A stretch of 40,555 bases of DNA. It comes from Nitrospira sp. GTDB taxonomy: Bacteria > Nitrospirota > Nitrospiria > Nitrospirales > Nitrospiraceae. Positions 21,840-40,555 of this stretch are shown here, piece by piece. The stretch is from contig JAHFEW010000038.1 of assembly GCA_023248215.1 (NCBI GenBank), forward strand, positions 1-40,555, in the 5' to 3' direction. Position 1 is the stretch's first letter. Every line of letters begins with the position of its first letter. The notes under the pieces are model-generated. The model was not told the origin of the DNA. It did no database searches and saw only the letters and a list, made by a program, of their open reading frames with translations. Made by a program: the position numbers and the translations under genes.

Positions 21840-22127
21840 ATGACCAAGGCCGACGCATGTGTGCGTGCAAAAATTCTTGTCAGCGGGCATGTGCAAGGAG
21901 TCGGCTATCGTGCGTTCGCATGCCGCACGGCAGTCTCGCGTGGACTGACGGGTGGTGTAGAGAATCTCGATAGCGGACAAGTTGCCCTGGATGTCGAAGG
22001 AACCAGGGAGGCGCTTGAGGAATTATTAGTGGATCTCAAAAAGGGACCGGTCGGGGCGCGCGTGTCGCAAGTCCAAGTGGAGTGGAGCAGCGCCACGGGC
22101 CGACATCACGATTTCACGATTTGGTAG
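21840..22127 (+). CDS. acyP: Acylphosphatase
   Basis: 95 residues, the family length. [11 protein letters not shown] carries the phosphate-binding loop and catalytic Arg (GYR), and VENLDSGQV holds the catalytic Asn. Hydrolyses acyl phosphates such as acetyl phosphate or 1,3-bisphosphoglycerate. It ends 14 bp before the sigma factor ATG, suggesting co-transcription, though the functions are not obviously connected. Confidence 0.94.
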
Positions 22128-22141
22128 CAGGTCACGACGTT

Positions 22142-23140
22142 ATGGCTCGACGCGCAACAGTTCGCCACGGTGCTGAGATGAATCCGCCCGCTTCGGTTCG
22201 CCGCCCGCGCGCCGCGCGCGGTGAAGAGGATGAGGACGGGGAATCACAGGAGGGCTCTGAGGCGGAAGCGTCCGGAGCAGAGAGTCGTCCTGCGGAATCG
22301 GGACGGGCTGAAGGCCTCGACACGATCAAGAGTTACCTGCGCGAAGTGCGCAAATCGACCCTCCTGAATTTTAAACAGGAACAGTCGCTGGGCAAGCGCA
22401 TCATGGCCGGCGACGAGGCCGCTCGCCAGGAAATGATCGAGGCCAATCTTCGCCTGGTCATCAGCATTGGGAAACGATACATGAACCGTGGGTTCCCCTT
22501 TGCCGATATCGTCGAAGAAGGCAATCTCGGCCTGATCAAGGCGGTGGAAAAGTTCAATTACAAGCGCGGGTTCCGCTTCAGTACCTATGCCTCCTGGTGG
22601 ATTCGTCAATTCATCGAGCGCGCTATCATCAATCAGGGCAAGCTGGTTCGGTTGCCGGTCCATGTCGTGGAGCGCTTGAACCGTTACCTGGGCAAGGTCG
22701 AGCAGTTGGTGCATGAGCTGGGACGGGAGCCTCGGACGGACGAAGTGGCCGCCAAGCTGAAAACCAGCGAAGCGGAAGTCGACGATCTGAAGCAATTGGT
22801 CCGCACCACCTGCTCTCTCGACAGTCCGATCAGCGACCGTCAAGATACCTTTCTACGGGACGTGATTGAAGACCCGCTCTGCCTCACGCCGGCGGAGACG
22901 ACCGAAGGGGTCATGCGGCGAGCGGAGCTCATGGCGTGGGTGAAGGAGTTGCCCGAAAAAGAGCGCACCGTGATTCTCGCGCGATTTGGACTTGACGGAG
23001 CCGAGTCGCGGACGTTAGAAGAGATCGGCCGCGAGATGGGGCTGACCCGCGAGCGGGTCCGCCAGATCGAAACGGCCGCACTTGTCAGGCTCCGCGGGAT
23101 CATTGAACGAAAAACCATGAAGCGGGCGGATCTCTTATGA
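22142..23140 (+). CDS. RpoS/RpoD-type sigma-70 factor
   Basis: 332 residues from ATG 22142 (a later ATG at 22178 is possible). An acidic, low-complexity N-terminus (residues 25-55) replaces region 1.1; then region 1.2 (IKSYLREV), region 2 with the -10-recognition segment [19 protein letters not shown], region 3 ([14 protein letters not shown]), and region 4 [13 protein letters not shown]. Compact size without the non-conserved region of RpoD fits an RpoS-like or alternative group 2 sigma, so it is unlikely to be the housekeeping factor. Co-transcribed with the acylphosphatase, and apt starts 24 bp downstream. Confidence 0.9.
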
Positions 23141-31116: not shown

Positions 31117-32271
31117 ATGAAGAGCCGGAATCACGTCGTCCTCGCCATCGCCGGGTTCTTGTTCCTCCTCATCGTGTTGATGGAATGGATGTTCCCTCTC
31201 AATGTGGTGGGCGCATTCGGATTCGTCCTGCCGATTCTGCTGGTGGCCACCGTTCGTAGTCGACGGCTCATGGTCTTCACACTGGCGTTGTGTATTCTGG
31301 TGACGTTTATCGGCCTCTTCCAGCCGGGGAAGAAGCGGGAGCGATTCACCGCTGTTGTTTTCAATCGCACCATGGTGGTCTGTGTCCTGGCAGGAGTTGC
31401 CTATATCGGCATGACATGGGAAGAACGCAAAGCCCGCGAAGAGGCGGCCAGATCCGCGTTGGCGACGCAAACCGAACACCTCCTGCGGGCGAATACACAG
31501 CTCGTCGAGATCAAGGATAAGCTGGCACGATCCGAACGGCTGGCTGCCGTGGGGCAGTTGGTGACTTCTGTGGCGCATGAAGTGGGGACGCCGTTGCATT
31601 CGATCGCCTGGCATGTGGAAGCCTTGAAGGAGGAGTCTGGTGTCACTGCCGAGATGCAAAAACGGATCGGCATCATCGATGAGCAGTTGAATCGCGTGGT
31701 GCGTATCATTCAAGATCTCTTGTCGTCGACCAGACAACGTAAGCCGGAGCCGACGTGGTATCCTGCAGAGCAATTGATCGGGACAGTCGTCGCCTTGATG
31801 GAGCCCGGATACCATGCCAAGGGGGTTACGCTTCAGACCGAGATGGCGCAGCCAGTGCCGCTCGTCTGGGCGGATGCCGACAGGATTCACCAGGTGTTGG
31901 TCAACCTCCTGACCAATGCTTTGGTTGCGACGGGGGCGGGAGGGCATGTGATGGTCACCGTGGCGACGCGTCCGGCCTCGACAGAGGAAATAGAGAGTGC
32001 GTCTTGCACGGGCCGGTTCGATCTCGACACCATGGTCACGTTGGCGGTGTGCGATTCCGGCTGTGGGATGCCGCAGGAAGATGTGGATCGGGCGTTTCAG
32101 CCGTTTTTTACGACCAAGGCGATTGGCAAGGGAACCGGCTTGGGGCTATTTCTGAGCCGCGAAGCCGTCGTGGCCCACGGGGGACAGTTGACACTAAAGA
32201 GCGAGGTCGGGGCGGGTACGACGGTCACCGTGGTCCTGCCCGGTTTGCCGTCGGACTCAGCCGCGGTCTAG
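31117..32271 (+). CDS. Membrane histidine kinase, NtrB-like
   Basis: 384 residues. ATG 31117 is used; GTG 31090, three bases after malQ, is possible. Hydrophobic segments at about 8-24, 31-46, 50-67 and 83-98 form a small membrane domain with no visible extracellular sensor, followed by a coiled coil (100-140), HisKA with H154 in SVAHEVGTPLHS, and HATPase with NLLTNA, DSGCGMP and GKGTGLGL. The partner is the NtrC-family regulator encoded after the intervening repeat copy B. Confidence 0.92.
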   Translation: MKSRNHVVLAIAGFLFLLIVLMEWMFPLNVVGAFGFVLPILLVATVRSRRLMVFTLALCILVTFIGLFQPGKKRERFTAVVFNRTMVVCVLAGVAYIGMTWEERKAREEAARSALATQTEHLLRANTQLVEIKDKLARSERLAAVGQLVTSVAHEVGTPLHSIAWHVEALKEESGVTAEMQKRIGIIDEQLNRVVRIIQDLLSSTRQRKPEPTWYPAEQLIGTVVALMEPGYHAKGVTLQTEMAQPVPLVWADADRIHQVLVNLLTNALVATGAGGHVMVTVATRPASTEEIESASCTGRFDLDTMVTLAVCDSGCGMPQEDVDRAFQPFFTTKAIGKGTGLGLFLSREAVVAHGGQLTLKSEVGAGTTVTVVLPGLPSDSAAV

Positions 32272-32394
32272 CAGGCTGTTGAAAAAGTCCGCCAGCGGCG
32301 TTCTCGTGGCGTGCAGAGGTTCCCCGTAAGACAAAAGTTCGCATCGCCTCTTCACTGGCTGCGGCCTTGCTGGACAGCCTTTTTGAACAGCCTG
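32271..32394 (+). repeat. Dispersed palindromic repeat, copy B (short form)
   Basis: About 124 bp. Terminal inverted repeats: left starts GCAGGCTGTTGAAAAAG, right ends CTTTTTGAACAGCCTG. The right half includes GGCTGCGGCCTTGCTGGACAG, matching copy A. Shorter and lacking the central blocks of copies A and C. Its first base is the G of the TAG stop of the kinase gene, and it lies between that kinase and its response regulator. Terminal hairpin could attenuate read-through. Confidence 0.8.
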
Positions 32395-32488
32395 TGGGCT
32401 ATTCTGTGACCATCCGTGAGTGTCTACGGTTCTGGATTCCCACAGATCCAAAATGGTTTTTGAATGCCCTGCTAGGAGAGATATACCG

Positions 32489-33883
32489 ATGAGCCAGGCG
32501 AAACTATTCGTGGTCGATGACGACGATGCCGCGCGCACCCTGCTGGCTGAGGCGCTGCTGAAGGAAGGATATGAGGTCGAAGCGTTTTCCAGCGGCCAGG
32601 CCGCCGTTGAACGTGGCAAACAATCGCGCGCCGACGTGGTCCTGACCGATATTCGGATGGAGCAAGGCGACGGCTTTCTGGTGTTGAAGGAGTTCAAGCG
32701 GTTCAGCCCGGATACGTCGATCGTGTTATTGACGGCGTTCGGGTCGTTGGAGGGCGCGATCGAAGCCATCAAGCAAGGGGCCTACGACTATCTCGCCAAG
32801 CCCTTCAAGAAAGAAGACATCCGCCTGGTGGTGCAACGCAGCTTGGAACATTGTCGACTGGTTCGAGAAAATGCCCGCTTTCGGGACGATGCGCGCTCGC
32901 GCGAACCCTGGTCGCAGTTGGTGGGCAGCAGCCCGGCGATGTTAGAGGTATACAAGCTGGTGGCCCGGGTTTCCGAAGGGCGAAGCACGGTGCTCATTGA
33001 GGGGGAGAGCGGAACCGGGAAGGAGTTAATCGCGCGGGCGGTGCATTTGAACAGTCCCCGTCGGGATAAACCGTTTATTCCCGTCAACTGCGGCGCGTTG
33101 CCTGATCACCTGCTGGAATCGGAAATGTTTGGATATGAAAAGGGTGCCTTTACGGGAGCCGTGGGCGCCAAGGCCGGTTTGTTCGAAGCGGCTCACGGCG
33201 GGACGCTGTTTCTCGATGAGATCGGCGATCTCGGCCAGGCACTCCAGGTGAAATTGCTGCGGGTGATGCAAGAACAGGAAGTGCGACGCGTCGGCAGTAC
33301 CTCGTCGGTGAAGGTTGATGTGCGCATCATTGCCGCGACCAATCGCGACCTGGCCACACTCGTGAAAGAGGGGAAGTTTCGCGACGACTTGTACTATCGT
33401 CTCAACGTGGTGCGCATTGCCCTGCCGTCGTTGGCCGAGCGGCGGGAAGACATTACGATGCTTGCCCATCATTTCCTGCAGAAGTATGCCAAGCAATCGT
33501 TGCATGTGAGGGGGTTTCTGCCGGAAACGATGGCGTTGCTGAAGCGCTACCACTGGCCGGGGAATGTGCGTGAGCTGGAAAATGCCGTGGAACGGGCGGT
33601 CTCCCTCAGCCACGGCCCGCTGTTGCTGCCGGACGATCTTCCGGAGTCAATTAGAGCTGAACCCGATCCGGCGGACTTGCTCAAGGCGGATCGAAGCGAT
33701 GCGGATCCGGACGCGTTATTGACGTTGGACGAGGTTGAGAAACGGCACCTGGCGCGTGTGCTCAAGGAGACGCGGGGAAACAAGGTCAAGGCGGCCAAAA
33801 TTCTTGGGATCGATCGGCGCACGCTGTATCGGATGGCGGAGCGGTTCGGGTTGGATTTCGGCGATGATGCCGAAGAGAAATAG
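32489..33883 (+). CDS. NtrC-family sigma-54 response regulator
   Basis: 464 residues. ATG 32489 follows TAGGAGAG. Receiver with phospho-acceptor D54 (VLTDIRMEQGD), AAA+ domain with Walker A GESGTGKE (172-179), sigma-54 loop GAFTGA (219-224), Walker B TLFLDEIG (239-246), and a Fis-type HTH in KAAKILGIDRRTLYRMAE. It activates sigma-54 promoters after phosphorylation by the adjacent kinase. Target genes cannot be assigned: I found no convincing -24/-12 element in the window. Confidence 0.96.
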   Translation: MSQAKLFVVDDDDAARTLLAEALLKEGYEVEAFSSGQAAVERGKQSRADVVLTDIRMEQGDGFLVLKEFKRFSPDTSIVLLTAFGSLEGAIEAIKQGAYDYLAKPFKKEDIRLVVQRSLEHCRLVRENARFRDDARSREPWSQLVGSSPAMLEVYKLVARVSEGRSTVLIEGESGTGKELIARAVHLNSPRRDKPFIPVNCGALPDHLLESEMFGYEKGAFTGAVGAKAGLFEAAHGGTLFLDEIGDLGQALQVKLLRVMQEQEVRRVGSTSSVKVDVRIIAATNRDLATLVKEGKFRDDLYYRLNVVRIALPSLAERREDITMLAHHFLQKYAKQSLHVRGFLPETMALLKRYHWPGNVRELENAVERAVSLSHGPLLLPDDLPESIRAEPDPADLLKADRSDADPDALLTLDEVEKRHLARVLKETRGNKVKAAKILGIDRRTLYRMAERFGLDFGDDAEEK

Positions 33884-33892
33884 ATCGGTTCG

Positions 33893-34339
33893 TTAGAGCA
33901 GTCGAAGCGCGTTCTTAATCAGGCGAATTTCATTTGCGGCACTCTGCGGCAACGGCGTCTCGGCCTCCTCCCACGAGTCGAAGAGCCCATCCTTCCCACG
34001 ATGAAACACTTGGAGCCGTAACCGTGTGGTGCTGTCGTCTTGCGGGACCACTCGAGCCTCCACCCGGCTCTTGCCCACCCCGAATCTCCAGCGCAGGAGC
34101 CCGTTCCACGGACTTCTGATCTCCTGTCGCATGCCGGTCGTCAGGTTGCCGGCATCGTCTTGATCGACACGATAGCCTCCTTGCGTCAGGACATCTGCCA
34201 CGGCAGTTTTGACTTGGTCGGAAGCAATCGGGAGGGTCACTTCCATCACATCCGGCTCAGGATAAGGAGGTCCTCCCGCGCACCCAGCCACCGTGGCGAC
34301 TAACAGCAGGGCCCTGATACTCGCGGCAGGAGATCTCAT
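33893..34339 (-). CDS. Putative lipoprotein
   Basis: 148 residues. Signal with lipobox VAGC near residue 20, then a mature beta-rich domain (ASDQVKTAVADVLTQGGYRVDQDD followed by RLRLQVFHRGK), which resembles small periplasmic alpha/beta proteins with a helix and sheet. Not recognised. Its ATG overlaps the stop of the preceding RAM-domain gene (ATGA), so the two are coupled. Confidence 0.75.
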   Translation of the reverse strand: MRSPAASIRALLLVATVAGCAGGPPYPEPDVMEVTLPIASDQVKTAVADVLTQGGYRVDQDDAGNLTTGMRQEIRSPWNGLLRWRFGVGKSRVEARVVPQDDSTTRLRLQVFHRGKDGLFDSWEEAETPLPQSAANEIRLIKNALRLL

Positions 34340-34590
34340 TTGGGTTTCCCTTCCTGAAGGCGGTAAACCATATGGGTGTCCGTCTGGTCGACCCCGGGGA
34401 TCGCATGAATTTTGGCGAGCACCAGTTGGGTGAGCGCATCCTGGTGGGGGATTTCGACGATGGTGAAAATATCTGGTTTGCCCCAGCAGGGATCGATTTG
34501 TTTGATTTCCTTAATCGTCGTCAAGGCCTTTACGACATCCGCCGTTTGACCGGGGTGGACATTGATCAACACGTAGGCTTTGTCCGGCAT
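34336..34590 (-). CDS. Lrp/AsnC ligand-binding (RAM) domain protein
   Basis: 84 residues. AYVLINVHPGQTADVVKAL and a C-terminal segment HAIPGVDQTDTHMVYRL form the beta-alpha-beta RAM fold of Lrp/AsnC regulators. There is no HTH, so it is a stand-alone amino-acid or effector-binding module. ATG 34590 is chosen; the frame extends to 34629. Such stand-alone RAM proteins bind amino acids and may modulate partners. Overlaps the lipoprotein gene. Confidence 0.85.
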   Translation of the reverse strand: MPDKAYVLINVHPGQTADVVKALTTIKEIKQIDPCWGKPDIFTIVEIPHQDALTQLVLAKIHAIPGVDQTDTHMVYRLQEGKPK

Positions 34591-34721
34591 GCAGGGGGTC
34601 TCCCATGGTGTGCGCGAGTCTGGCGGCAACGCCTGCCCGCGATTCGGAACCTAGCGGATTGCTTCGGATGAAGTCAACAGAACGTCGTCTATTCGGTGGG
34701 CAGTGATGGTATTGCGTCGCG

Positions 34722-36422
34722 CTATTTTGGGGCGACGATGACCTCCACCATATACGCGTCGCTGATCGTGGTGAGGTCGGCCTCCAGCCCGCGAGGATTT
34801 CCGACTCGACCCTCAGGGTCGTAGATAAAGCATAGCAGGGTGTTTCCGTTCGGTCGTGCAGCATAATGGGCTACGTCTGCCTTCACCTGCTCGGCGAGGT
34901 CCTTCGTGGTCAACCCCGAACGGGTCTGTTTGACGACGACGACCGTCCTGTCCCAGTCGAGAAGGTAGCTGGTCCGTGGAGCGCCGCTTGCATAGCTCGG
35001 AGTCCACTCTTCCGTCCCGACCTCATCGAATTGCAGTCGCAGGAGCGCGTAGAACAGGTCCTGCAGGTCGTATTCGTCGGTGATTTCCAGCGTCGGGCGG
35101 TACTCTTTTCGCAAACGGAGCTGGCGGGCTACCAGGTGGAAACGTGCGCAGATTCTCCGGAGCATGTCGAGTGTTCCGTTCTCCGCCTGGCTACTCTCCA
35201 TGCTCGACTTCTGGGGGGCCTCGAGCGCCGGAGGGGCAGCCGAAAATTCCATGGCAGGTGCCACGGACTCTGTCGGCTTGGGGCCAGGGGCAGAAGGTCT
35301 AGGTGGCTGAATGGATAGCACTTCGGTTGGGACTTCGGGAACAACGGTTACTCTGTCGTGCGGCGGCTTTTCTATCAAAGCATTGGCTGTGGTTTCAATC
35401 GGCGCAGGGGACAGGGGGGTGTCCGTAGTCGAGGTGGATGGCAGGGTGTCTGCTGGTTCTGAGCCCCTGCGTAATGACAAGGGAGGCCCTGTCGGCGCAA
35501 CCGACGCACCCGCAGGATGTTGAGTCGTCTGTGGGACAGGGGGAATGGCTCCCTGCGGAATCACTGTCCGGAGCGATGCTGTTGTCGGAATCGCCGCTGT
35601 GGTCGAATGCTGTTCCGGTGGACTCGACGAGTCTGTGGTGCTTGCTGGGGCCGGTGGGGCAGGAGTTGTGGGGCCCGGAGCCGGCACGGCTAAGGTGGGC
35701 TTGCTCTCGTCAACAGGAATCGAGGCAGGTCCAGTCTGCGTGGTGTCAGGTTGGGGCGACGACGATGGATGGGGCTGGCGAGGCATCGATATTTCGCGAA
35801 CCGGTTGCGGTGAAGACGCCGGATCCGTAGAGATAGGCACTGGATTGACCGTGACCGGTGGGGTCATGACTATCGGCGTGATGGCTTGTGCCGGCGGGCT
35901 GAGGTTGGTCGTCATCGCAACCGAGATCGTCATTGGAGCGCTGGTCATGGTCACGGCGGCGATGGGGGGGGTACTCAGGGCGCCGGGTGCAGGGATTGAC
36001 TCGGAAGGAAGGCGTGGGGGCACTGCCGTCAACGTAGGTCGTTCGGTTGCTGCCGGCGGAGGTGCCACTGGTGAGGCCGGTTTGAGACCCAAGAGCTCTG
36101 CCTTCTGATTCTCCAGCGTGGCGATCAATTCCTTCACGAGTCCAGTGCTCTGTGCGGACTCCGTACGACTGCCGACTCGTAGCTTGTGATTCTTGTGCGT
36201 CTGATACTCCGGCGATTTTTCGCCGAAGAGCCGCCGAATCGTTTCGCGAAAGGAAAGTTCGGTTCTGGCGCGGACCGCTTCACGATAGGGAAAGCCATCC
36301 CGGCTGAGGTCGTCGATTTGCGTGCTCAAGTCACGCAATTTCGCGATGCCGCGGGTGAGTTCTTCTGCGGCGTTTGGTTTTGTCCGGCTGCGCTGCGGTT
36401 CGCTTGGTTTTGCTCGTGCCAT
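34722..36422 (-). CDS. Proline-rich protein with degenerate PD-(D/E)XK domain
   Basis: 566 residues. A helical N-terminal domain (1-115, with DGFPYREAVRARTELSFRE) is followed by a Pro/Thr/Ser/Ala-rich linker (about 116-410) and a C-terminal domain (about 419-566) of the DpnII/MboI-like PD-(D/E)XK nuclease family (TDEYDLQDLFYALLRLQFD, EEWTPSYA, CFIYDPEGRVGNPRGLE). Active homologues keep DFLL then EVK; here the Asp is Ser (S485) and the Glu is Val (V496), with only K498 left. It is probably inactive as a nuclease. A binding or scaffold role is possible. Confidence 0.8.
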   Translation of the reverse strand: MARAKPSEPQRSRTKPNAAEELTRGIAKLRDLSTQIDDLSRDGFPYREAVRARTELSFRETIRRLFGEKSPEYQTHKNHKLRVGSRTESAQSTGLVKELIATLENQKAELLGLKPASPVAPPPAATERPTLTAVPPRLPSESIPAPGALSTPPIAAVTMTSAPMTISVAMTTNLSPPAQAITPIVMTPPVTVNPVPISTDPASSPQPVREISMPRQPHPSSSPQPDTTQTGPASIPVDESKPTLAVPAPGPTTPAPPAPASTTDSSSPPEQHSTTAAIPTTASLRTVIPQGAIPPVPQTTQHPAGASVAPTGPPLSLRRGSEPADTLPSTSTTDTPLSPAPIETTANALIEKPPHDRVTVVPEVPTEVLSIQPPRPSAPGPKPTESVAPAMEFSAAPPALEAPQKSSMESSQAENGTLDMLRRICARFHLVARQLRLRKEYRPTLEITDEYDLQDLFYALLRLQFDEVGTEEWTPSYASGAPRTSYLLDWDRTVVVVKQTRSGLTTKDLAEQVKADVAHYAARPNGNTLLCFIYDPEGRVGNPRGLEADLTTISDAYMVEVIVAPK

Positions 36423-36526
36423 AGTAACGCGCCTCTATTGAGAACAGTCTATCGAAGGAGTGCCTGATAAGAATCCAGTGTCGCCCGTCCGTCGTTCTTC
36501 GGCGAGGAACGTGGTGACGACTGGCG

Positions 36527-37021
36527 TTAGTCAAACCACTCGACATCACCCTTTCCCGACGGCGCCGTTTTCTTGGGATTTGCGGTGGCGGGTGGGCCGG
36601 CCAGGACTTGTCGCACCAGGATCAGCAGCGCATCGGTGGTAAAGGGTTTCCTCAGAAACGGCAATCCGTCTCGGAGGAGGCCACGGTTGCGCAACTCAGG
36701 ACCGGGACTGCTGGACATGAGAATGATGCGGATGTCTCGCTTTCCTTCCAGCAGGCGCTCGACCATCTCGAGCCCATTCACGCGAGGATAGGGATTTTTG
36801 TCGACGGACAGTTGGAATCCAGGCGGTGGCAGGAAGATGTCGGCTAGGATGAGATGCACGGGGTTGGGGTATTCCGCATAGAGTCTGAGAGCTTCGGAGC
36901 TTCCCGGGGCTTGGAGCACGGTATAGCCGGCCTCCTGCAGCGGTTTCGCGCTCAGTAGAAGGGTTGAGGGGTCGTCGTCGACAATCAAAATGGTCGAGGG
37001 CTGTATCAAGTCAGTGGTCAT
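36527..37021 (-). CDS. Single-domain response regulator with loop insertion
   Basis: 164 residues, receiver only. Acidic pocket DDD15-17, phospho-acceptor D61 (LILADIFLP) and K near FLRKPF. Between D61 and the next helix there is an insertion of about 14 residues (GFQLSVDKNPYPR) that normal receivers lack; this loop sits beside the active site. The C-terminus is an unstructured tail. No output domain, so it may act by protein contact, or as a phosphate sink. A weak functional link to the hybrid kinase operon is possible; no kinase is adjacent. Confidence 0.88.
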   Translation of the reverse strand: MTTDLIQPSTILIVDDDPSTLLLSAKPLQEAGYTVLQAPGSSEALRLYAEYPNPVHLILADIFLPPPGFQLSVDKNPYPRVNGLEMVERLLEGKRDIRIILMSSSPGPELRNRGLLRDGLPFLRKPFTTDALLILVRQVLAGPPATANPKKTAPSGKGDVEWFD

Positions 37022-37091
37022 GGTGGACTCCTCTAGGGCGTCTCCTGTGTCCCTCGGTATTTACGGCGGTCGGCGCCTGAGAGACACGGCA

Positions 37092-37940
37092 TTAGAACGG
37101 ATGGGGTTGCTCCTTGAGCCGTTCGTACTCCCGCTGTTCGCAGCTGCCTTGTTTTGCTCGTAGGGATTCAGGGACGTCCGCGAAGCGCAAGGCGCAATAA
37201 CGCTGGGCCTGTCGGCGTCGGTCGAGGTCCTGCTGTTCTTCCAGCTGCTGAAGGCGTGCTGTGAGATCGATGGCTGGAAGATCTTTGCCCGCCGGTTTGT
37301 CCTGACGAGGCGTCATCGACGGGTCGTCGCTGGAACGTGGGTGCGGGCCGTTCAATCGCCAATGTGTCAGTACATCGTCCTGATTGAACACAATGGTTAA
37401 GCCGAATTGGGAGTAATCCCAAATCAGTTCGCCCCTGTCCGGATGCGCCCAGATGGAACGAGGCAGTCCGTACCGGTTCCACACTTCATCGCGCAGCATC
37501 CCTACGCGCGGCGTCAGATTTCGGATCGCCGTGATCTGCGCAAGAATTGGGGAAATGTCCGTCTGCCTGCCGGGGGTTGTGTGTTTTGTGAGGGATTCCA
37601 GCGCGGCGCGAGGGGCGCGCAATAATCGCCACACCGTGACCAGTCCTGAAGCACAGTCGGAGGGGTGCGGGTCTTCGAAGACCATTTGTGTATCCAGCGG
37701 AAACCCTCCGATTTCCTGGGCGCGTGTGAAGTTCTTGACCTCCTGGATGGCGGCCACATAAGCACGTTGACGCCCCTCTTCGACGTTCGGCGCGCAGGAG
37801 GATCGTCCGGTGAAGAATACATCGTCGCCAAAATGGAACAAGGCTTGCTCCGTCCAAAAAGGACGATTCTCAGCAGCCCTTACCATCGAGGTCGTGAGGA
37901 GACCTAGGCTGAGAAGCGCGGTCACAATGCGATGGACCAT
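37092..37940 (-). CDS. Exported protein of unknown function
   Basis: About 282 residues from ATG 37940, chosen because a signal peptide (VTALLSLGLLTTSMVRAAE) begins there; no strong ribosome site is present and the frame is open to 38033. Mature part contains FFTGRSSCAPNVEEGRQRAY, then an alpha-helical segment, then WDYSQFGLTIVFNQDDVLTHW and a charged Gln/Arg-rich helical tail (about 225-250). Five cysteines could form disulfides. I do not recognise the family. Confidence 0.7.
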   Translation of the reverse strand: MVHRIVTALLSLGLLTTSMVRAAENRPFWTEQALFHFGDDVFFTGRSSCAPNVEEGRQRAYVAAIQEVKNFTRAQEIGGFPLDTQMVFEDPHPSDCASGLVTVWRLLRAPRAALESLTKHTTPGRQTDISPILAQITAIRNLTPRVGMLRDEVWNRYGLPRSIWAHPDRGELIWDYSQFGLTIVFNQDDVLTHWRLNGPHPRSSDDPSMTPRQDKPAGKDLPAIDLTARLQQLEEQQDLDRRRQAQRYCALRFADVPESLRAKQGSCEQREYERLKEQPHPF

Positions 37941-38157
37941 ACGCGTGCGAGATGAACAGACGTTATGTGGCGGCACCCCTGCAGTATAACGCGTGGGTCG
38001 ATTAAATCGACAAAAGAGCAATTTCGCGCTCAACCGCCGATAATGTGGAGAACAAGAGGCCCTGTCAGAGAGTCCGTGGGAGGATCATCAGCTCGCGGGT
38101 TCTCGAAGCTTCAGAATAAAAACGGTTAGCAGGTCTTAGCACATAAGATACGAACCA

Positions 38158-38394
38158 GCAGGATGCTCAAAAAAGCCGATCAGCAGGGCCGCAGCGAGGT
38201 GTTCGATGCGAGGGGTAAAGAGCGTCACGTTTGCGCGCGCCGGTGAGGCGGTGAACCGGCGGTTTCCCGACCCGAGGCATCACGTTCCTCCCCTCCGACT
38301 CCGAGCCTGCCGTGACAGGTTCTTCTCCCATGGGGGTACGTTGAGGGTCTGAACGAAGCGAGAAAGCTGCTGACGGACTTGTTCAGCATCCTGT
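38158..38394 (-). repeat. Dispersed palindromic repeat, copy C (long form)
   Basis: About 237 bp and aligned end to end with copy A on the opposite strand: the identical 19-mer at 38216-38234, the hairpin CGCCGG...CCGGCG, and both terminal repeats. By eye identity is roughly 80-85%. Read on the minus strand its first base follows directly, or overlaps by one, the TAA stop of the lipoprotein gene. It and a 124-bp remainder (38034-38157) fill the gap before the exported protein gene. Confidence 0.85.
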
Positions 38395-39083
38395 TAGTAG
38401 TTCGTGGATGTGTTTGAGCTTTGGCTGCTGGAGGCAGCGGGCGTGGCCTGGGGCCTGGGAAGACTCACTTCACTGGTCATGAGGCCGGATCCTGGAGGAC
38501 AGATATTTTCCGGCGCGATGGCCCCAGGGTTGCGCATGCCCCAGGCTGTCGCAAGGGCATGGCAGGTGAGGAGACTGATGCCTTCTTCGATATTGCTGAA
38601 TCGCTCGGTCGACTGAGCCCTTCCGCTCCATTCAATTTCGCCGGTATTGACGTCGACGGCCCGGAGAGCGACCGTGGCCGAATAGACCCTTTGACTGCGG
38701 GGAAAGCCAGCACTCCAGTCCAAAGCCTCCCAGGATCCTATTTCGGCATTGCTGAAGACCACCAGCCGAGCACCCACAAGTTTAGCCATTCGCAACACGT
38801 CTGTTTCAATATACTGATATCCCGTGAGGCTCACCTTTTGATCCGCTGCGGCCTGCAGCACTTTGGTTTGGTCGACGACGAGAATCCCCTTCTTCAGCAA
38901 CCAGGTGCTGGCGCTCTGGATCGTATCAGGGCGTCCACCCCAGACAACTGCCCGGGTGTAGGGAGATGGTAGTTTTGAATGGAAGCCATCCGTCGTCGGG
39001 GTTTCCACAAACGCGTATCCCCGGCAACCAGCTGTTGCCAGCAGGAGTGCACACACAACCATGAGCAGATTCACCGATTTCAT
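38394..39083 (-). CDS. CsgG/LpoB-like lipoprotein
   Basis: 229 residues. Signal with lipobox TAGC near residue 19. The mature domain has VVDQTKVLQAAADQ, then GARLVVFSNAEI, then ALRAVDVNTGEIEWSGRA, a strand-helix order typical of the CsgG/LpoB-like fold in which a lipoprotein binds peptidoglycan or an envelope partner. C-terminal Ser/Thr-rich tail. Assignment to the fold is tentative. The stop codon touches repeat copy C. Confidence 0.75.
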   Translation of the reverse strand: MKSVNLLMVVCALLLATAGCRGYAFVETPTTDGFHSKLPSPYTRAVVWGGRPDTIQSASTWLLKKGILVVDQTKVLQAAADQKVSLTGYQYIETDVLRMAKLVGARLVVFSNAEIGSWEALDWSAGFPRSQRVYSATVALRAVDVNTGEIEWSGRAQSTERFSNIEEGISLLTCHALATAWGMRNPGAIAPENICPPGSGLMTSEVSLPRPQATPAASSSQSSNTSTNY

Positions 39084-39155
39084 GTGTCTCTTAGCTATAG
39101 GGTTTGCCGAGAGCCGTCAACGTGAAACTTTTTTTCATCAAAGACAAGCAGGGGT

Positions 39156-39392
39156 TTGCGTAGGATGGCGTGTTTGCTAATGGGCGACATTATACATGAA
39201 CGATTCTACACAGGTCTGCCGTATTCGTCGAGGCGATTAGGTGAAGTGGCGAAACGGGCACCACTTCATGGCAGAGACGGCAGGCACTTTCTATCGTCAT
39301 GCGAGCGACCTGGTCAGACCTTACCGACCGACCTCGCCGGTCGCATCGAGGTCCTGCGCGAATGGAAAGAAGAGTTGTGCGAAGAGCGCTGA
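39156..39392 (+). pseudogene. Possible frameshifted gene remnant
   Basis: Within the 379-bp gap 39084-39462. One frame gives FMAETAGTFYRHASDLVR before about 39315, and another gives TLPTDLAGRIEVLREWKEEL after it. Joined by a single indel these would read as one plausible helical protein end. Neither half has a recognisable family or ribosome site, so this is weak. Confidence 0.25.
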
Positions 39393-39462
39393 CATGAAGC
39401 CGATCGTAAAAGGCGCCCGAGAGGACGGCGGCCTACTGGTGGCTAGTAGAACCGCCGCAGAC

Positions 39463-39594
39463 TCACAGAATCTCGACCTGGGGAAAGGCGTTCTGATCAC
39501 TTGTCTGTTGTGGCCGGTCAGCCATGACCATGAGCTGAATGGCGATAAATGGGACAAGCGCATAACCGAGCAGGATCAAGGGGAACTCAATCAT
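39463..39594 (-). CDS. 43-residue single-pass membrane protein
   Basis: ATG 39594 follows AAAGGAG at eight bases, the best ribosome site in this gene-poor end. Begins with IEFPLILLGYALVPFIAIQL, a membrane helix, then a short polar tail (MADRPQQTSDQNAFPQVEIL). Too short for a family call. Could be a small subunit of a membrane complex or a regulator; the neighbours do not help. Confidence 0.5.
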   Translation of the reverse strand: MIEFPLILLGYALVPFIAIQLMVMADRPQQTSDQNAFPQVEIL

Positions 39595-40246
39595 GACATA
39601 GACTCCTTTGTTAGGTGGAGTGTCCCAAGGCAAGCGCGGTACCGCCATGCCGTCAACGGATAACATGTTGATTCTCAGCGGGGGCGGAGCGTCCGCATGA
39701 AAGCCGTACAGCGCATGGCGAGGACCGATGTAAGGAACTGTGCAATCAGAACATTTTGCGTTGAGCCAGAAGGCCTAAGGGTGGTCGCGCAGAATGAAGG
39801 AGGGAGTGCTTAGGAAAGACACCGACCCCGGGAGGAGATTGTGCAGCCCGATTTGTCGGCACTGACTCGACATGACAGATACCTGGTGCGGCAAGCAGGT
39901 ATGCCAATGAGTAGACCAGTGCATGCCTCATCAGCTATCTGGAGTGCCGTACGGAAGGGTCTCGCGCACCGGTAATTCACCATCCATCGCGTCAGTAATA
40001 GTCTAAACCTAGTTGAACACAATACACATCTGCAGCTATCTGCGCACTCACGGATTCATAAGTAGGACAACCGTGACATGGACCAATTCAGTGCAGCCGC
40101 CAAACGCGGGTCTGTACTCCAGACCACGGGGAAGCCAGCAATACTGAACCCGAGGGGAGTGGATGAGCGGCCTGGCGCTCGTTCAGCGCGGAAGCGCATG
40201 GTGGATGTTCGGGTCCTATCAGGCAGGTTGAAACGTGTGAAAAGTT
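39595..40246. other. 652-bp stretch without supported genes
   Basis: All open frames here are under 75 codons, lack ribosome sites and look random. No repeat copy, hairpin terminator or RNA gene is visible. It ends at the tRNA-Arg fragment, and may be worn-down DNA next to an integration site. Confidence 0.5.
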
Positions 40247-40291
40247 TGGTGCCCCCGGCCTGAATTGAACAGGCGACCTTCGGTTTAGGAA
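40247..40291 (-). pseudogene. 3' fragment of tRNA-Arg (CCT), likely att site
   Basis: Read on the minus strand: anticodon loop with CCT (40289-40287), 3' half of the anticodon stem, T arm GCCTG-TTCAATT-CAGGC, acceptor strand CGGGGGC, A and CCA. The 5' half is absent: the sequence before the loop does not pair with the anticodon stem. Tyrosine recombinases often cross over in the anticodon loop and leave just such a fragment. The chromosome would lie to the left and the element to the right. Confidence 0.7.
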
Positions 40292-40555
40292 TCAGGACAG
40301 GACAGTTTCTAAAACGCTCGGTGTTACAAATGGTTTCCCCGTTTTAACTGTAGAAACAAAGACATGGGCGATTTCTAGGGAATCGATAGATTCGAGAAGA
40401 ATTAATAGCTTCCGGATATTTTTAGCACAAATTTTATATGGACCCAGCCTCCGGTACAACGGCGGGTCATACGCGATGAACCACCATGCAGGGCTGCGTT
40501 TATATATCCGGCCTCTCGATGGACAACCGATGTGTCCGGGCCTTGATGAAATACG
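40292..40555 (-). CDS. Possible partial ORF at the right edge
   Basis: Minus-strand frame open for 87 codons from the window edge to TGA at 40292-40294, directly touching the tRNA fragment. No start is in the window. A piece reading RGRIYKRSPAWWFIAY vaguely recalls the arm-binding segment of tyrosine integrases, but the following residues do not fit and a frame this long can arise by chance. The stretch 40300-40440 is AT-rich. Confidence 0.25.
   Translation of the reverse strand, partial: RISSRPGHIGCPSRGRIYKRSPAWWFIAYDPPLYRRLGPYKICAKNIRKLLILLESIDSLEIAHVFVSTVKTGKPFVTPSVLETVLS

What the first reader, a model, noticed from the sequence alone, without database searches (positions are those of the whole stretch)
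40247..40291. tRNA-Arg(CCT) 3' fragment marks an integration edge
A clean 3' tRNA half ends at the anticodon loop and the adjacent DNA becomes AT-rich. This is the classic scar of site-specific integration into a tRNA gene. The orientation places the integrated element to the right of the window; an intact tRNA-Arg(CCT) on the minus strand should be at its far end.
Basis: partly seen in the sequence, partly recalled or inferred. Interest (0 to 1): 0.65.

Follow-up and report, generated by a model that had tools for sequence, protein, structure and literature searches.

The report
Phage-like island scar with guided IS
The 45-base piece is a true scar left when a small phage-related element inserted into the cell's only tRNA-Arg(CCT) gene, and the same element family has since been hit, exactly at the DNA sites its integrase should bind, by a jumping gene that appears to be steered there by its own guide RNA.

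Summary
Window 40247-40291(-) is identical over 45 bp to the 3' half of the genome's only tRNA-Arg(CCT), which is intact on contig C45, 170 bp from that contig's end. A close relative (G028) has the empty site: window DNA runs straight into an intact tRNA at base 40291. Complete Nitrospira relatives, including Ca. N. defluvii, show tRNA, integrase, HTH excisionase, Rep, cargo, a conserved 143-bp end, the tRNA fragment, then the window genes.

In this genome the element is a remnant. Both contigs stop inside an IS1111-family insertion sequence. It sits in tandem 11-bp-spaced repeats (TGTGCTAA-ATTTGTGCTA) present in both arms of the element's att site, presumably integrase arm-type sites. Related IS copies hit the same sites next to Arg, Thr, Lys and fMet tRNA scars (7 of 8 right-end flanks, one weak). 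Their noncoding region carries guides matching this target; a relative with another target carries a 10-nt match to its own flank. An RNA-guided IS aimed at integrase arm sites is the new part.

Also new to me: in at least six loci one tRNA gene lies between two integrases, one element restoring its 3' half and the other its 5' half.

The parts
31151..40246 (.). Host chromosome left of the scar; colinear with the empty site of relative G028 and with the far side of the island in complete relatives
   Evidence: 83-88% identical to G028 L090; alignment breaks exactly after 40291; homologs lie beyond the tRNA fragment in L086, L087, L088, L097, L100
40247..40291 (-). Displaced 3' half of tRNA-Arg(CCT), from anticodon loop to CCA (attachment-site scar)
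   Evidence: 45/45 identical to the intact tRNA at G000:C45:82717-82793(+)
40284..40291 (-). Crossover zone TTCCTAAA: shared by the 3' scars of this element family and by the 5' scars of the opposing element family
   Evidence: att comparisons
40292..40434 (+). Distal arm of the element's att site, AT-rich and conserved in at least 12 relatives at 70-79%
40422..40430 (-). TTGTGCTAA, first copy of the tandem (11-bp spacing) putative integrase arm-type site; the second copy is displaced by the IS
   Evidence: alignment of 14 distal arms and 13 proximal arms
40435..40555 (-). Right end of an IS1111-family insertion sequence, continuing beyond the contig; subterminal inverted repeat ATGGACCCAGCCT at 40438-40450
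   Evidence: 95% identical to the right end of the complete 1.42-kb IS in G016:C296; transposase Pfam PF01548 + PF02371

Best explanation
The fragment is the displaced 3' half of tRNA-Arg(CCT), left when a tyrosine-integrase element crossed over in the anticodon loop. The element brought its own copy of the 3' half, so the working tRNA was rebuilt on the far side (now contig C45). In relatives the element is a compact Rep-HTH-Int module with cargo, related to filamentous-phage (inovirus) genomes but without a coat or Zot gene at this site. In this genome the element is a remnant. An IS1111-family IS has inserted between the two tandem repeats TGTGCTAA / ATTTGTGCTA in the att arms, which the integrase presumably needs to bend DNA for excision. 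It probably found them by RNA guides encoded downstream of its transposase, and it probably locked the element in place. Shown by sequence: the repeat, the empty site, the filled sites, the arm repeats, IS insertion at the arm repeats, and guide-target matches. Inferred: that the repeats bind the integrase, that the noncoding region is a working seekRNA/bridge RNA in this IS, and that excision is blocked.
For: Exact 45-bp repeat with the sole tRNA-Arg(CCT). Empty site in G028, where similarity stops exactly at 40291. In G018, G023 (Ca. N. defluvii, FP929003.1) and G025, C45 homologs and C44 homologs lie on either side of a 4-6 kb element at the same tRNA. Integrase abuts the tRNA in at least 13 relatives. 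HTH_17 and Rep_trans lie beside it. C45 keeps the int 3' end, then the IS. Both contig ends are the two ends of one IS type, complete in G016. Arm repeats occur in both arms of elements at Arg, Thr, Lys and other tRNAs. 7 of 8 IS right-end flanks lie about 145 bp from a tRNA 3' fragment (one of them degenerate), and 3 left-end flanks lie about 50-70 bp from an intact tRNA. Guide segments: TTGTGCTAA in the noncoding region matches the left flank over 9-12 nt in five IS copies (shuffle p < 0.001); G024 has a 10-nt guide match to its own, different, right flank. The guide-region outer stem has 3 pairs with changes on both sides.
Against: The middle of the IS and any element body are not in this assembly, so the window's own guide was not read; it lies about 15 nt past the contig end by comparison with relatives. 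One of 8 right-end flanks (G286) has no tRNA fragment, and the one in G299 is degenerate. The guide1 match is weak in three of five copies. The predicted RNA fold is no more stable than shuffles (z 0.55). Two other left-end flanks in this genome (C48, C150) are not near a tRNA; they carry TTGTGTTAA.
Confidence: 0.88

Rival explanations
1. The fragment is a decayed tRNA gene or a random tRNA duplication unrelated to a mobile element.
For: Only the 3' half is present, and no integrase gene survives in the window.
Against: Exact end at the anticodon loop, an intact copy in the predicted orientation, an empty site in G028, and a conserved element end beside the fragment in relatives with an integrase beside the tRNA.
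Confidence: 0.02
2. The TGTGCTAA / ATTTGTGCTA flanks are the IS's own termini, not target DNA, and the link to integrase arms is a coincidence.
For: The flanks are nearly constant in all copies.
Against: The uninterrupted sequence TGTGCTAAATTTGTGCTAA occurs in at least 35 arms without any IS. In the window the right flank aligns with IS-free arms of relatives and reads on into the 143-bp arm. Left flanks vary with the site (CTGCTAA, TGTGTTAA, TGTGCTAA). Flanks lead to tRNA scars of different tRNAs.
Confidence: 0.07
3. Two IS copies, one in each arm, flank a still-present element body that was not joined in this assembly (for example C150, which starts with an IS end and carries an 84%-identical Rep).
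For: C150 and C48 also start with IS left ends; C150 encodes Rep at 22111-23025.
Against: No matching int or HTH was found: the PF00589 search of the genome and tblastn give none close to int3, although the assembly is 99.96% complete. C150 is mostly tad-like genes with no int or HTH. No second right-end flank was found.
Confidence: 0.35
4. A group I intron in the tRNA-Arg(CCT) anticodon loop explains the split.
For: Such introns are known in bacterial tRNA-Arg(CCT) genes (own knowledge).
Against: The intact tRNA on C45 has no intron; no intron family matched in Rfam; the other side of the split is element DNA, not a 5' half.
Confidence: 0.01

Closest known systems
tRNA-targeted genomic islands as catalogued in Islander (PMC4383910)
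   Same: Tyrosine integrase, anticodon-loop crossover, intact tDNA rebuilt by the island, displaced 3' fragment at the far end
   Different: The integrase of this copy is lost and the att arms carry an IS. Some relatives also have a second island on the 5' side of the same tRNA (5' fragments are 159 of 3919 islands in Islander).
Integrated inoviruses of the Pf type, which carry tyrosine integrase and HTH_17 excisionase at tRNA genes (PMC7549136)
   Same: Int + HTH_17 + Rep module; integrase type tracks the tRNA used. A full Zot-encoding version occurs at tRNA-Lys in L150 and on the 5' side of tRNA-Arg in G015 and G011.
   Different: The 3'-side tRNA-Arg elements lack Zot and carry cargo (VapBC-like, TIR-HEAT, Fic, helicase), so they look like satellites or mobilizable elements.
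IS1111-family insertion sequences with seekRNA (PMC11187229) / IS110 bridge RNA (PMC11208160)
   Same: DEDD + Transposase_20 enzyme, subterminal inverted repeats, noncoding region downstream of tnp with two short segments matching opposite strands of the target, no target duplication
   Different: The target is the tandem arm repeat of a tRNA-island att site. Known targets named in those papers are attC sites, REP elements and parts of other ISs; integrase arm sites are not mentioned in the passages read.

Membership tests
tRNA-integrated genomic island | Intact tDNA plus cognate fragment in the same orientation at the two island ends | tested here: met
   contig linkage inferred from synteny in relatives
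tRNA-integrated genomic island | Empty site in a relative | tested here: met
   G028 alignment breaks at 40291
tRNA-integrated genomic island | Integrase gene inside the element | tested here: inconclusive
   In this genome only the decayed int 3' end remains on C45; a complete int lies beside the tRNA in at least 13 relatives
Inovirus (filamentous phage) prophage | Zot/pI morphogenesis ATPase | tested here: not met
   Absent from this genome and from the 3'-side tRNA-Arg elements; present in the 5'-side elements of G015 and G011 and in L150
Inovirus (filamentous phage) prophage | Rolling-circle type replication initiator | tested here: met
   Rep_trans PF02486 E 4e-34 and Phage_CRI in G015; 51% identical to the Rep of the Zot-bearing element. 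For relatives only; no Rep was located in this genome's Arg element
IS1111 family | DEDD_Tnp_IS110 + Transposase_20 transposase | tested here: met
   G016 copy; the transposase of this genome's copy is not assembled
IS1111 family | Subterminal inverted repeats | tested here: met
   ATGGACCCAGCCT at both ends, window 40438-40450 and C45
IS1111 family | Noncoding region downstream of tnp encoding a guide RNA that matches both target strands | tested here: met
   About 290-300 nt NCR with both segments at fixed places in relatives; expression not testable here
IS1111 family | RNA-dependent transposition to the target | not testable with these tools
   needs an experiment

The most novel reading that the evidence does not exclude
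A lineage of RNA-guided IS1111-type insertion sequences in Nitrospirota is programmed against the tandem arm-type sites of tRNA-specific integrases. It homes on the attachment-site arms of a whole class of integrated phage-like elements whatever tRNA they occupy, and so immobilises them.
Probability: 0.72. Interest if true: 0.72.

Novelty: new variant of a known kind. Interest (0 to 1): 0.6.

Why it matters
The scar itself is ordinary. The neighbourhood shows one mobile element using short RNA guides to hit the recombination machinery sites of another. These sites are conserved across elements that use different tRNAs, so a single guide can reach all of them, and insertion should strand the host element. 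It gives a concrete, testable case of natural guide programming with an ecological rationale, plus ready-made target and guide pairs. The tRNA genes flanked by two integrases, each element restoring a different half, are good material for asking how a symmetric anticodon-stem core can be used in both polarities.

Tried and rejected
Group I intron: no Rfam match and the intact tRNA has no intron. Chance tRNA-like sequence: rejected by the 45-bp identity and the empty site. C150 as the missing element body: it has a Rep (84%) and an IS end but no HTH or int and mostly tad-like genes, so not adopted. C48: ordinary chromosomal genes. IMG/VR exact-pattern scan for the fragment: nothing. Rfam on the fragment: only sub-threshold chance matches. 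Folding energy of the guide region: not better than shuffles, so only the covariation of the outer stem is used. Papers on IS110/IS1111 targeting att arms or on inoviruses in Nitrospira: none found in the held library; most subscription papers are not held.

Full report
OBSERVATION. The window is the whole of contig C44 of a 199-contig assembly. Its relatives are Nitrospira: relative G023 has the length and locus of FP929003.1, Candidatus Nitrospira defluvii. The minus strand from 40291 to 40247 is identical over 45 bases to the 3' half of tRNA-Arg(CCT). The intact gene is at C45:82717-82793(+), 170 bp from the end of C45, and there is no third copy. No 5' half lies beside the fragment. The next 143 bases are 38% GC against 58% for the window.

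INTEGRATION. Three tests agree. (i) Empty site: in the close relative G028 the window's DNA (88% identical) runs straight into an intact tRNA-Arg, and similarity stops after base 40291. (ii) Filled site: in G018, Ca. N. defluvii and G025, homologs of C45 lie upstream of tRNA-Arg(CCT); then come an integrase pointing at the tRNA, an island of about 5-6 kb, a tRNA 3' fragment, and homologs of the window. Longer or tandem islands occur in G001, G007, G011 and G024. (iii) att comparison: within each genome the intact tRNA and the fragment share sequence from TTTCCTAA in the anticodon loop to CCA, with differences between species.

THE ELEMENT. Reading out from the tRNA, relatives carry a tyrosine integrase (PF00589), an HTH_17 protein like excisionases, and a Rep_trans replication initiator, then variable cargo such as VapBC-like, TIR-HEAT, Fic or helicase genes. 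A scan of named genomes shows the same Rep-HTH-Int order at tRNA-Arg(CCT), Thr(CGT, TGT), Lys(CTT) and Val(CAC), and int alone or with HTH at others. Rep stays about 94% identical while Int falls to 61-74% when the tRNA differs, so integrase modules are swapped. One Lys element (L150) carries Zot, the filamentous-phage morphogenesis ATPase, so the family touches inoviruses. The Arg 3'-side elements lack it, and I read them as satellites or mobilizable relatives (inference). The window's genome has sister elements at tRNA-Thr(CGT) on C159 (direct repeat at C159:9583 and at the contig end; RND efflux cargo) and at tRNA-Glu(CTC) on C41 with a broken integrase.

STATE OF THE WINDOW'S ELEMENT. On C45 the tRNA is followed by the last codons of the integrase (VSLTC-stop preserved, then decayed), and 45 bp on the sequence changes to an IS end. 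In the window the conserved 143-bp arm ends at 40434 and becomes the other end of the same IS type. A complete copy in G016:C296 is 1.42 kb, with both ends in the order and orientation needed to bridge C45 to C44. Whether one IS now replaces the element, or two copies flank a body missing from the assembly, is not settled.

ARM REPEATS. Both att arms of IS-free relatives contain two direct repeats 11 bp apart, TGTGCTAAATTTGTGCTAA: 47 bp from the tRNA on the integrase side and about 130 bp from the fragment on the far side. The motif occurs at least 35 times in the loci held, near int 3' ends or far-end arms, of elements at several tRNAs. By analogy with lambda-type integrases these are arm-type binding sites (inference).

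THE IS AIMS AT THEM. The IS is IS1111-type: DEDD and Transposase_20 domains, subterminal inverted repeats and a downstream noncoding region. All its copies, and relatives 67-85% identical in other genera, sit between TGTGCTAA and an ATTTGTGCTA-like sequence. Of eight right-end flanks, seven lie about 145 bp from a tRNA 3' fragment: Arg(CCT) here and in G293, Thr(CGT) in G017, Lys(CTT) in G181, fMet-like in G247 and G016, and a degenerate one in G299. Three left-end flanks lie about 50-70 bp from intact tRNAs: Arg(CCT) here, Thr(CGT) and Lys(TTT) in G017. The fMet and G299 fragments were read by eye from the sequence.

GUIDES. Published work shows that IS1111 noncoding regions give a seekRNA with two short segments matching the two target strands (PMC11187229; PMC11208160). 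Here the region holds ACAAATT and, about 26 nt on, TTGTGCTAA, matching opposite strands of the arm repeat. The second match is 9-12 nt in five IS copies (shuffle p < 0.001); the first is weaker. In relative G024, which has a different target, the first segment at the same place is AAGGGGAGCA, a 10-nt match to its own right flank; its second segment matches its left flank only if wobble pairs are allowed. The stem around the guides has three pairs with changes on both sides, though folding energy is not unusual.

TWO-SIDED tRNA. In G015 (L134), G011 (L151), G004 (L083), G057 (L099), L144 (tRNA-Thr TGT) and L148 (tRNA-Arg CCT) a second integrase, 32% identical to the first, faces the same tRNA from its 5' side. 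In five genomes a separate 5' half ends at GGTTTCCTA(A) beside host-like upstream DNA. Islander lists 159 islands with 5' fragments among 3919, so 5' use is known but rare; I did not find the paired arrangement described. The anticodon arm GCGGTTTCCTAAACCGC is an inverted repeat, which may let related integrases use the core in either polarity (inference).

VERDICT. The scar is a known kind of feature, correctly read. The RNA-guided IS aimed at integrase arm sites is, as far as I could search, a new variant of a known kind; IS1111 members that target other recombination sites (attC) are known.

Noticed in passing
L089/L134, L097/L151, L083, L099, L144, L148: One tRNA gene flanked by two convergent integrase genes of different subfamilies; the 5'-side element leaves a 5'-half tRNA fragment, the 3'-side element a 3'-half fragment, both cut in the anticodon loop.
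   Followed up: partly
G000:C159:9583-22690 (L104, L022): Sister element at tRNA-Thr(CGT) with both direct repeats, a truncated integrase and an RND efflux operon as cargo.
   Followed up: partly
G000:C41:1500-4284 (L021): Sister element at tRNA-Glu(CTC): Rep 81% identical, HTH, integrase with a frameshift.
   Followed up: partly
L085:3850-4034 (G009): The island at tRNA-Arg(CCT) carries an internal arm with a tRNA-Thr(CGT) fragment, suggesting a tandem or recombined element from another tRNA.
   Followed up: no
G000:C150 (L103, L116): Contig with an IS left end, a tad-like gene cluster and a truncated Rep (84%) next to a RelE-like toxin gene; its link to the window's element is unresolved.
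   Followed up: partly
window 34722-36422 (-): 566-aa protein with a C-terminal DpnII/MboI-like restriction endonuclease domain (PF18742), about 4 kb from the scar in host DNA.
   Followed up: no
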